Positions 62,116-64,000 of a DNA stretch of 64,000 nucleotides are shown piece after piece. This DNA comes from Acidobacteriota bacterium (GTDB taxonomy: Bacteria > Acidobacteriota > Blastocatellia > Pyrinomonadales > Pyrinomonadaceae): positions 124,001 to 188,000 of the forward strand of contig JAOAPY010000016.1 of NCBI GenBank assembly GCA_025463135.1. Reading direction: 5' to 3'. The notes beneath the pieces were generated by a model. It had not been told where the DNA came from. It was given only the letters and a program-made list of their open reading frames with translations, and searched no databases. The position numbers and the translations under genes are program-made. Numbering within the stretch: the first letter of the stretch is position 1; each line of letters starts with the position of its first letter.

Positions 62116-62550
62116 TCAGAATCCCCTTGAACTACACATCGCGCAATGATCACAAGGCTTGCCGCTCGGATCGATCGAGCAGGTCTTCTCACTCTGAAAG
62201 TAATCCACCAACTCATTCACCACCGCTTCTTCGATGCCAAATCGCTCTTCAGTGGGATGCGCTGCCGCGGCATTCACCCCAGCCAGCCAGGGTGAATGTG
62301 TGGGCGGCACAAAACCGGCAAAGGTACGCTGTGCGGATGTCGTGTGTGTGGATGTATTGTGCGCTTCCCCGCGCGCCTGGGATTCCAATTGCAGCAGTCG
62401 TTTCTGCAAATCGTTTATGCTCGCGCGAACTGCTGCGATCTCCGCATTCAACGGACTGTTCGGTTGCGTGGGGTTTGTTGAAAGACCCGCTGAAACTTTG
62501 CGGGCAATTCGCTCGGCCAGTGCCCGAGCTTGATCTGGTTCAGTGCTCAT
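62116..62550 (-). CDS. Unrecognised protein at the end of the microcompartment operon, Cys-rich tail
   Basis: A 144-residue protein. The first 20 residues (DQARALAERIARKVSAGL) could form an amphipathic helix of the kind used to target cargo into microcompartments; a heptad helix follows (IAAVRASINDLQKRLLQLES). The C-terminus has GIEEAVVNELVDYF and then four Cys in the last 20 residues (KTCSIDPSGKPCDHCAMC), a possible metal site. It is 72 bases downstream of a vertex protein gene in the same direction. I know no family for it; cargo or shell-associated role is inference from place and from the N-terminal helix. Confidence 0.75.
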   Translation of the reverse strand: MSTEPDQARALAERIARKVSAGLSTNPTQPNSPLNAEIAAVRASINDLQKRLLQLESQARGEAHNTSTHTTSAQRTFAGFVPPTHSPWLAGVNAAAAHPTEERFGIEEAVVNELVDYFQSEKTCSIDPSGKPCDHCAMCSSRGF

Positions 62551-62622
62551 TATGATCAGATTTGGCTTACGGTATTAATGGCACAACATATCAGCGCTCA
62601 GAACGCAAACTGAAAGTCTGCG

Positions 62623-62898
62623 CTACTTCAAGAAATCGATTCGATCGACAACACCTATAATCGCAGAATCGATTGCCGCACCCGCCTTCCCAGTGGCGGC
62701 GGTCGATGCTCCCCAGCCTTCCTGCACGATCAGGACCGTGTCTCCAGCACCGGCATCAACGGAATCGAGAGCCAGTATGGTCATGCCCGTGCTATCGCCT
62801 TCAGGAGTGATTTGCTCACAAAGCATGACGCGCGCGCTCTCGTAGCGCTCGTTCTTTTGAGTGGCGACGACGTTTCCCAGGACCTTTGCGAGAATCAT
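62623..62898 (-). CDS. Microcompartment vertex protein, EutN/CcmL family (third copy)
   Basis: A 91-residue pentameric shell protein (BMC-P) that caps the corners of a bacterial microcompartment. ILAKVLGNVVATQKNERYES, ILALDSVDAGAGDTVLIVQE and DSAIIGVVDRIDFL are the family core. I start at ATG 62898 to align with its two paralogues; the longer frame is repeat-derived. No ribosome site is clear, and two hairpins lie just upstream, so its translation may be held low. Confidence 0.92.
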   Translation of the reverse strand: MILAKVLGNVVATQKNERYESARVMLCEQITPEGDSTGMTILALDSVDAGAGDTVLIVQEGWGASTAATGKAGAAIDSAIIGVVDRIDFLK

Positions 62899-62902
62899 TG
62901 TG

Positions 62903-62954
62903 TATCGCAAGCTGCCGGCTTGCGTATCCGGTGCAAGCTGGGCAGCTTGCACTA
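62903..62954. repeat. Two hairpins between vertex protein genes
   Basis: CGCAAGC (62906-62912) pairs with GCTTGCG (62918-62924), and GTGCAAGCT (62931-62939) with AGCTTGCAC (62944-62952). They fill the 61-base gap between the second and third vertex genes, next to the start codon of the third. Confidence 0.7.
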
Positions 62955-62959
62955 CATCA

Positions 62960-63235
62960 CTACCCCTGCGTTACGTGCGCATTCGAATCGACGATTCCAA
63001 CAATCGTGCAATCAGTAGGAGTATCGTCGCGTTTGAAAGGAAAACTCGCTTCCTTGCCGCGGCACCAGAAAACCAACTCGCCAACTCCAGCGCCCACCGA
63101 ATCGACCGCCACCAGTGGTTTGCCCTGGGGGTTCAGATCCTTGTTCAGTGACTGGATTACCAGCAGCTTGCGTCCTGCGAGTGATTCATTTTTGATAGTG
63201 GCGACGACGGTGCCGATTACACGGGCAAGTTGCAT
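62960..63235 (-). CDS. Microcompartment vertex protein, EutN/CcmL family (second copy)
   Basis: A 91-residue BMC-P protein: QLARVIGTVVATIKNESLAG, GKPLVAVDSVGAGVGELVFW and DCTIVGIVDSNAHVTQG are typical. It has a charged insertion (KEASFPFKRDDTPT) before the last strand. It lies 21 bases after the coiled-coil gene. Confidence 0.93.
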   Translation of the reverse strand: MQLARVIGTVVATIKNESLAGRKLLVIQSLNKDLNPQGKPLVAVDSVGAGVGELVFWCRGKEASFPFKRDDTPTDCTIVGIVDSNAHVTQG

Positions 63236-63255
63236 CGAATTATTTACAAATGATC

Positions 63256-63588
63256 CTAAGATCCCTTGTTTCCGTCTCCACCCAGGTGTCTCTCAACAAC
63301 GCCGATGAAAATGTTCAAGCGCTCCGCCACTTCGGAAAGTTTCTCGTCTGTTCGCGTCTGCGAAGCTAGAAGCTGTGCCTGCCCTTGAGCCAATCCCCCC
63401 ACCAAACCCACTACCGTTGTGACAGCATCAGAGAGATTGCGATATTGTTCCTTCAGGAGCTTTGTTTCTTCCTTTAGCAGCTGGGTATCCGCCGCATGTA
63501 CCTCGCGCATGACCTGAATGTCGGCAGAAAAGTGGGCCTGCTGCTCTACGATGAACTTCATCTTTCTATTCAGTTCTTCATCGCTCAT
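63256..63588 (-). CDS. Coiled-coil protein within the microcompartment operon
   Basis: A 110-residue, mostly helical protein of unknown family: EELNRKMKFIVEQQAHFSAD, ADTQLLKEETKLLKEQYRNL, then SEVAERLNIFIGVVERHL. The middle has a Gly/Ala/Val stretch (VTTVVGLVGGLAQGQAQLL). I start at ATG 63588, eight bases after GAGGAA; the upstream reading extends into the adjacent gene's spacer. It lies between the first and second vertex genes, so it is probably made with the shell; a cargo-shell adaptor is a guess. Confidence 0.8.
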   Translation of the reverse strand: MSDEELNRKMKFIVEQQAHFSADIQVMREVHAADTQLLKEETKLLKEQYRNLSDAVTTVVGLVGGLAQGQAQLLASQTRTDEKLSEVAERLNIFIGVVERHLGGDGNKGS

Positions 63589-63634
63589 GGCCATTTCCTC
63601 TAAAGCGATTACACGTCTGGGTCTCGCAATGGTT

Positions 63635-63904
63635 TCATTCCTGCACGTCCACGGTGTCAATTACTCCTACAATCGCTGCATCGACGGGTACGTCTTTCAT
63701 GCCCTGCGCCAGGCGCGCGCTGGAGCCGGCCACAACCAGCACACGCTCGTGAAAGCCGGCGCCGACGGTATCCACAGCGACTACATAACCGGTAGTGTCA
63801 CTGCCATCGACGTTAATGGGACGAACGATCAGCAGTTTCTTTCCCAGCAGTCGTTCGTCTTTCTGGCTCGAGACTACCGTGCCCATGATGCGCGCGATGA
63901 TCAT
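63635..63904 (-). CDS. Microcompartment vertex protein, EutN/CcmL family (first copy)
   Basis: An 89-residue BMC-P protein: IIARIMGTVVSSQKDERLLG, GYVVAVDTVGAGFHERVLVV and DAAIVGVIDTVDVQE. It is the most standard of the three in length and text. Its start follows the stop of the shell protein gene at the window edge by three bases. Confidence 0.94.
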   Translation of the reverse strand: MIIARIMGTVVSSQKDERLLGKKLLIVRPINVDGSDTTGYVVAVDTVGAGFHERVLVVAGSSARLAQGMKDVPVDAAIVGVIDTVDVQE

Positions 63905-63907
63905 GAC

Positions 63908-64000
63908 TTAGGAACGCAGACCAATGGGAAGCGTCTCATCAACACTGCCATGGGGTCTGGGAATCACATGTACGCTGACTAATTCACCGACGCGTCGAGC
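63908..64000 (-). CDS. BMC-domain shell protein, C-terminal end (cut by window edge)
   Basis: On the - strand the last 93 bases translate in frame to 30 residues and TAA (63910-63908). The text GELVSVHVIPRPH is the near-invariant end of the BMC domain of hexameric (BMC-H) or tandem (BMC-T) microcompartment shell proteins, followed by a short tail ending ETLPIGLRS. The gene continues past base 64000. Which shell class it is cannot be told from this fragment; a preceding Arg-Arg (ARRVGE) fits BMC-H. Confidence 0.88.
   Translation of the reverse strand, partial: ARRVGELVSVHVIPRPHGSVDETLPIGLRS

What the first reader, a model, noticed from the sequence alone, without database searches (positions are those of the whole stretch)
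62116..64000. End of a microcompartment operon with three vertex-protein paralogues
Seen: C-terminus of a BMC shell protein at the edge, then three EutN/CcmL genes with two unrecognised small genes. Known: three vertex paralogues occur in the Haliangium and in planctomycete/verrucomicrobial-type loci, whereas carboxysomes and most Pdu/Eut loci have one or two. Inferred: a metabolosome; the enzymes and signature aldehyde dehydrogenase should lie just to the right.
Basis: partly seen in the sequence, partly recalled or inferred. Interest (0 to 1): 0.75.

Follow-up and report, generated by a model that had tools for sequence, protein, structure and literature searches.

The report
Two-part acidobacterial ACI-type microcompartment operon
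This is one half of a bacterial protein-shelled organelle, a sugar-phosphate metabolosome already catalogued in Acidobacteria as type "ACI", whose aldehyde-processing half lies elsewhere in the genome; the type is known, but its substrate is not, and this genome lacks the kinase and phosphotransacylase that the usual fucose/rhamnose model needs.

Summary
On the minus strand, window 62116-64000 contains three real EutN/CcmL (BMC-P) genes, the C-terminus of a BMC-H gene and two small genes. The operon continues to the right: BMC-H, a class II aldolase with a C-terminal encapsulation-peptide-like helix, and Rex, then divergent ruvA. The predicted aldehyde dehydrogenase is not there. It lies on another contig with a BMC-H, a fourth BMC-P, an ACT (UPF0237) protein and DUF711. 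The genome has no PduL and no BMC-T. This matches the published ACI type of Acidobacteria (PMC8217296): aldolase with C-terminal EP, BMC-P triplet, AldDH always on a satellite. One listed ACI gene, the hydroxyacid dehydrogenase, is absent here and from every related Blastocatellia locus I read, but present in Vicinamibacteria-type loci. In related families the triplet itself is split over two sites. New details are Rex as the linked regulator, a conserved Cys4 "term" protein with an EP-like N-terminus, and a P4-ACT-DUF711 module. The substrate stays open: no FGGY sugar kinase was found, which weakens the fucose/rhamnose model. A DHAP-shunt model (5-deoxyribulose-1-phosphate to DHAP plus acetaldehyde) is compatible but unproven.

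The parts
62116..62550 (-). 'term' protein, 144 aa: EP-like N-terminal helix, linker, and an invariant C-terminal cysteine motif CxxxxxGKPCDHCxMCxSRGF at the very end; last gene of the operon
   Evidence: found in 18 related loci, always next to P2/P3; invariant H98 P99 C124 C133 D134 C136 M138 C139 G143 F144 over 16 sequences; helix 4-23 modelled at pLDDT 85-89, the rest poorly
62623..62952 (-). BMC-P paralogue P3 (EutN/CcmL); likely start ATG at 62898
   Evidence: PF03319 73.8 bits; P3 orthologous group 100/98 support
62960..63235 (-). BMC-P paralogue P2
   Evidence: PF03319 107.5 bits; closest solved chain 4i7a; group support 100/99
63256..63660 (-). 134-aa coiled-coil-like protein; insertion private to this genome, probably not part of the organelle
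   Evidence: no counterpart in 16 other loci of the family
63635..63904 (-). BMC-P paralogue P1
   Evidence: PF03319 102.8 bits; group support 90/89
63908..64000 (-). BMC-H shell protein, C-terminal 93 bases; the gene continues beyond the window to C31:188192. Beyond it, outside the window, follow the class II aldolase (C31:188320-189135, minus) with a C-terminal EP-like helix, and Rex (C31:189189-189968, minus), the first gene of the operon
   Evidence: PF00936 106 bits; 91-98% identical in the other Pyrinomonadaceae loci; NCBIfam EutM-like 147 bits; aldolase PF00596 158.8 bits; Rex 253 bits vs cut-off 126, the only PF06971 match in the genome

Best explanation
It is the main locus of an ACI-type metabolosome in an uncultured Pyrinomonadaceae/Blastocatellia (Acidobacteriota subdivision 4) bacterium. 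A shell of facet hexamers (three BMC-H genes in the genome) and a vertex triplet (P1-P3, plus P4 from the satellite), without BMC-T, encloses a class II aldolase and a CoA-acylating aldehyde dehydrogenase, both carried in by encapsulation-peptide helices. The aldolase cleaves a ketose-1-phosphate to DHAP plus a short aldehyde; the dehydrogenase (encoded with its own BMC-H, and with P4, an ACT protein and DUF711, on a distant satellite) turns the aldehyde into an acyl-CoA and NADH. The operon-linked Rex probably ties expression to the NADH/NAD+ ratio. Shown: gene content, conservation, two-site layout, catalytic residues, tails. Inferred: encapsulation, co-assembly of the two loci, reaction order, Rex control. 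Unknown: the sugar phosphate.
For: Three BMC-P and one BMC-H here; [quoted passage not shown] Aldolase PF00596 with invariant catalytic and metal residues and an EP-like tail; 62 of 62 aldolases with shell genes nearby keep a long tail. The only EutE-like acylating AldDH found sits with BMC-H and BMC-P on C15 (TIGR02518 589 bits, just under its 620 cut-off; best-scoring solved relatives 3k9d and acetylating acetaldehyde dehydrogenase 5j78) and carries an EP-like helix plus a conserved ITPxARD tail in nearly all of 24 genomes. The layout repeats in 35 of 36 genomes. Shell and AldDH are lost together: of 10 genomes without BMC-P, 9 also lack this AldDH, including 7 of one genus. Rex-aldolase-H-P order holds in families f1, f5, f6 and f8. 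The published ACI description matches.
Against: No direct evidence that the two loci build one organelle. The hydroxyacid dehydrogenase given for ACI is missing. There is no PduL, so CoA recycling inside the shell is unexplained. Rex is the only Rex of the genome and may be a general regulator that merely sits there. In this genome no Rex operator is visible upstream (5 mismatches).
Confidence: 0.8

Rival explanations
1. Same organelle, substrate L-fuculose-1-P or L-rhamnulose-1-P giving lactaldehyde, as in PVM and GRM5 compartments.
For: Same aldolase family; proposed for ACI in general terms in PMC8217296. FucA structures match the aldolase profile at 95-122 bits.
Against: No FGGY-type sugar kinase was found in this genome, estimated 100% complete, although the control rang in 11 of 14 genomes. 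No PduL. The nearest solved relatives are not FucA. The linked regulator is Rex, not a sugar-responsive DeoR.
Confidence: 0.15
2. DHAP-shunt organelle: the aldolase cleaves 5-deoxyribulose-1-P (from 5'-deoxyadenosine of radical-SAM enzymes, through mtnA) into DHAP and acetaldehyde, which the acetaldehyde-dehydrogenase-like AldDH converts to acetyl-CoA.
For: AldDH resembles acetylating acetaldehyde dehydrogenases. DrdA (6BTD) scores above FucA with the own aldolase (80.4 vs 66-73 bits). A phosphorylase-mtnA route needs no FGGY kinase. A relative with the same organelle (G054) has an mtnA gene, and no mtnC/mtnD motif in about 1.5 Mb read.
Against: mtnA is common and not linked to the BMC. No MTA phosphorylase, nucleosidase or kinase motif was found in the part of G054 read. 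Not tested in the own genome. 6voq/6vop score higher than DrdA.
Confidence: 0.18
3. The PF00596 enzyme is an OtnC-like 3-oxo-tetronate-4-phosphate decarboxylase, or acts on ribulose-1-P giving glycolaldehyde.
For: Best NCBIfam match is OtnC (145.9 bits); best PDB matches 6voq/6vop, labelled only 'Aldolase'.
Against: OtnC score is far below its cut-off of 250. Decarboxylation yields no aldehyde, which would leave the AldDH without a role; the ribulose-1-P variant is untested.
Confidence: 0.12
4. Decaying satellite shell cluster with no function of its own.
For: One private insertion (134-aa gene) and a split locus.
Against: All genes intact; orthologous groups and order kept across the family and class.
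Confidence: 0.03

Closest known systems
ACI-type BMC locus of Acidobacteria (Sutter et al. 2021, PMC8217296)
   Same: Acidobacteria; class II aldolase with C-terminal EP; BMC-P triplet; BMC-H; AldDH on a satellite; proteins of unknown function
   Different: no linked hydroxyacid dehydrogenase; Rex leads the operon; fourth BMC-P with ACT and DUF711 on the AldDH satellite; in related families the triplet is split P1 / P2-P3
PVM (planctomycete/verrucomicrobial) fucose/rhamnose BMC
   Same: class II aldolase signature enzyme; BMC-H and several BMC-P
   Different: AldDH not linked; no PduL and no FGGY kinase in the genome; Rex instead of DeoR
HO (Haliangium ochraceum) BMC
   Same: BMC-P triplet
   Different: this genome has no BMC-T of any kind; different enzymes
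DHAP shunt (DrdK/DrdI/DrdA, PMC6079011)
   Same: FucA-family class II aldolase giving DHAP plus aldehyde; downstream acetaldehyde would suit the AldDH found here
   Different: the DHAP-shunt clusters described there are not linked to shell genes; kinase/isomerase genes not linked here

Membership tests
ACI BMC | found in Acidobacteria (mainly subdivisions 4 and 6) | tested here: met
   closest named loci are gp4 Acidobacteria and Pyrinomonadaceae, 70-84% aldolase identity
ACI BMC | pfam00596 aldolase with C-terminal EP | tested here: met
   (EP by sequence only)
ACI BMC | triplet of BMC-P | tested here: met
ACI BMC | at least one BMC-H | tested here: met
ACI BMC | AldDH on a satellite locus | tested here: met
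   C15:221628-223460, on a different contig; same in 35 of 36 genomes
ACI BMC | hydroxyacid dehydrogenase (pfam00389/02826) in the locus | tested here: not met
   absent from the flanks; the three strong own-genome matches lie in a SerA gene, a SerA-SerC operon and a polysaccharide-type region; none in the related Blastocatellia loci; present after the triplet in Vicinamibacteria-type loci L131, L139, L141, L156, L162
ACI BMC | AldDH closest to MIC3 AldDH | not testable with these tools
   no typed AldDH set on hand
PVM BMC | AldDH, PduL and aldolase in one locus with a DeoR regulator | tested here: not met
HO BMC | BMC-T shell proteins | tested here: not met
   only three single-domain PF00936 genes in the genome
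DHAP shunt | 5-deoxyribulose-1-P aldolase activity with kinase or phosphorylase and mtnA-type isomerase | tested here: inconclusive
   mtnA seen in relative G054 only; upstream enzyme not found in the part read

The most novel reading that the evidence does not exclude
The ACI metabolosome, near-universal in one soil acidobacterial family, is a compartmentalised DHAP shunt that contains the acetaldehyde made when 5'-deoxyadenosine from radical-SAM enzymes is recycled, controlled by the redox sensor Rex.
Probability: 0.15. Interest if true: 0.75.

Novelty: new variant of a known kind. Interest (0 to 1): 0.42.

Why it matters
ACI compartments occur in a group that can dominate soil communities, yet their substrate is unknown. 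These data narrow the question: in this genome the fucose/rhamnose reading lacks its kinase, and the AldDH looks acetaldehyde-type. They also supply new handles: Rex as candidate regulator, an EP-tagged ACT protein beside DUF711 (no function found), and a Cys4 protein conserved with the vertex pair. The split of the triplet into P1 and P2-P3 sites in sister families is a natural test of which vertex proteins work together.

Tried and rejected
AldDH to the right of the window: rejected (36 kb read). PduL anywhere: none. BMC-T: none in this genome. A BMC-linked hydroxyacid dehydrogenase: none. 134-aa coiled-coil protein as a component: rejected, private to this genome. Fold of the term protein: model weak (pLDDT 68.6), no fold match below E 1; no PDB sequence relative. 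Rex operator by consensus: enriched upstream of rex (10 of 36 at 3 or fewer mismatches vs about 1-2% expected) but not in this genome and not before the AldDH satellite. Upstream sugar-processing genes near aldolases in 80 named loci: none recurrent; recurring neighbours are ruvA/ruvB and housekeeping genes. MTA phosphorylase, nucleosidase and methylthioribose-kinase-type motifs in about 60% of relative G054: none. First automatic tail comparison gave zero-length tails through an alignment artefact and was replaced. A first look at the neighbours of mtnA in G054 read the wrong stretch and was repeated.

Full report
What is in the window. The window is G000:C31:124001-188000 of a 6.48 Mb, 56-contig genome estimated complete. 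On the minus strand at its right end are three EutN/CcmL genes, all well above the Pfam cut-off, and the last 93 bases of a BMC-H gene. Between and after them are a 134-aa and a 144-aa gene without a family match above cut-off.

What lies beyond. Reading 36 kb to the right gives, in operon order from the promoter side: Rex (189189-189968), class II aldolase (188320-189135), BMC-H (187908-188192), P1, the 134-aa gene, P2, P3 and the 144-aa 'term' gene. Divergent ruvA-ruvB stand before Rex and a convergent lemA gene after 'term'. No aldehyde dehydrogenase, PduL or BMC-T follows. The genome's EutE-like AldDH is on contig C15 (221628-223460) behind a BMC-H and before a fourth BMC-P, an ACT protein and DUF711; a third BMC-H follows 4 kb later. 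PduL is absent from the genome; only three PF00936 domains exist, all single, so there is no BMC-T.

Conservation. Of 118 genomes of the class, 108 have BMC-P genes. In 36 chosen genomes, 35 have the AldDH and BMC-H genes, with the AldDH always at a different place from the aldolase locus where both were read. In 17 genomes of this family the order Rex-aldolase-H-P1-P2-P3-term is the rule: Rex in 14, aldolase in 16, term in 15. In the other families P2-P3 (sometimes with term) sit at another place from aldolase-H-P1. The four vertex groups P1-P4 are each a single group on the tree (90/89, 100/99, 100/98 and 100/100 support), though the alignment is short and inner branches are long. Of ten genomes without BMC-P, nine also lack the AldDH, among them all seven of one genus; the tenth is 89% complete.

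Enzymes and tails. The aldolase keeps E74, H93, H95 and H156 in all members, equivalent to the catalytic glutamate and metal ligands of fuculose-1-phosphate aldolase (family knowledge), and ends in an amphipathic helix such as GKISLSREELVELLTQAMNSK. In 80 named-genome loci, all 62 aldolases with shell genes nearby have 98 or more residues after the NHG motif; several of the 17 without shell genes in view are shorter, though others keep the tail, some at contig ends. The AldDH has a linker with the helix (K)I.REEIAAIVDRFL and an end DFVSEDDVRRAIQKGEKIYI..KTIITPSARDLGE; a resemblance of the latter to EutQ/EutT N-terminal segments is from memory only. The ACT protein is a UPF0237 domain (residues 71-158) behind a conserved 70-residue extension that AlphaFold makes two helices and a disordered linker. 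The term protein has an N-terminal helix and an invariant cysteine-rich C-terminus; a metal or Fe-S site is a guess.

Regulation. Rex is the sole Rex of the genome and is adjacent to the aldolase in 18 of 24 main loci from four families. Sites resembling the Rex operator TTGTGAA-N4-TTCACAA with at most 3 mismatches stand upstream of rex in 10 of 36 loci, against 1-2% expected, but these are related genomes and the site is not seen in the own genome. Rex control is plausible, not shown.

Typing. PMC8217296 describes ACI, exclusive to Acidobacteria: aldolase with C-terminal EP, hydroxyacid dehydrogenase, BMC-P triplet, BMC-H, unknown proteins, AldDH consistently on a satellite, function unknown. 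All testable features are met except the hydroxyacid dehydrogenase. The own-genome copies are a SerA gene on C38, a SerA-SerC operon on C11 and a gene in a polysaccharide-type region on C9. The gene does follow the triplet in Vicinamibacteria-type loci. I therefore call this the Blastocatellia (subdivision 4) form of ACI; the catalogue may already contain it, as its supplements could not be read.

Function. That the enzyme pair makes and consumes an aldehyde is well supported by family knowledge. Which sugar phosphate is open. No FGGY kinase was found, so the fuculokinase/rhamnulokinase step of the PVM model is missing unless another kinase family serves. By sequence the aldolase is nearest to 6voq/6vop, then DrdA (6BTD), then FucA; its best NCBIfam model, OtnC, is far below cut-off. 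The AldDH is acetaldehyde-type. A DHAP-shunt reading fits these points, and mtnA exists in a relative with the same organelle, but no phosphorylase, nucleosidase or kinase was found in the part read. I put it at 0.15-0.2.

Noticed in passing
C15:224032-224508 and C15:225509-226870 (L010:19033-19509, L011:510-1871): ACT protein (UPF0237) with a conserved 70-aa N-terminal extension that looks like an encapsulation peptide, followed by DUF711 (UPF0210); the ACT gene stands with a fourth BMC-P in several families, suggesting a cargo module of unknown function.
   Followed up: partly
C15:223100-223460 (AldDH C-terminus): AldDH tail with an EP-like helix and a separate conserved ITPxARD segment in nearly all of 24 genomes, resembling EutQ/EutT N-termini (from memory).
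   Followed up: partly
window 54309-62000: Division/cell-wall cluster mraZ-rsmH-ftsL-ftsI, a ZIP-type transporter, a TPM-domain protein, a nucleotidyltransferase-like protein and lemA (names from sequence reading); the lemA block is kept beside the BMC operon in most of the family.
   Followed up: no
L132, L135, L143, L146, L147, L158, L165: Terriglobia-type aldolase relatives with no shell genes within 4 kb, some beside ruvA; several still carry the EP-like tail, so their shell genes may lie elsewhere.
   Followed up: no
genus g30 (G013, G018, G023, G037, G041, G045, G052): A genus, several members of which are two-contig genomes, that lacks both the BMC-P genes and the AldDH: joint loss of the whole organelle.
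   Followed up: partly
L067, L069, L070, L071: BMC-T (tandem PF00936) genes stand alone in some genomes of families f2, f3, f5 and f8, far from the other shell genes, so shell make-up varies within the class.
   Followed up: no
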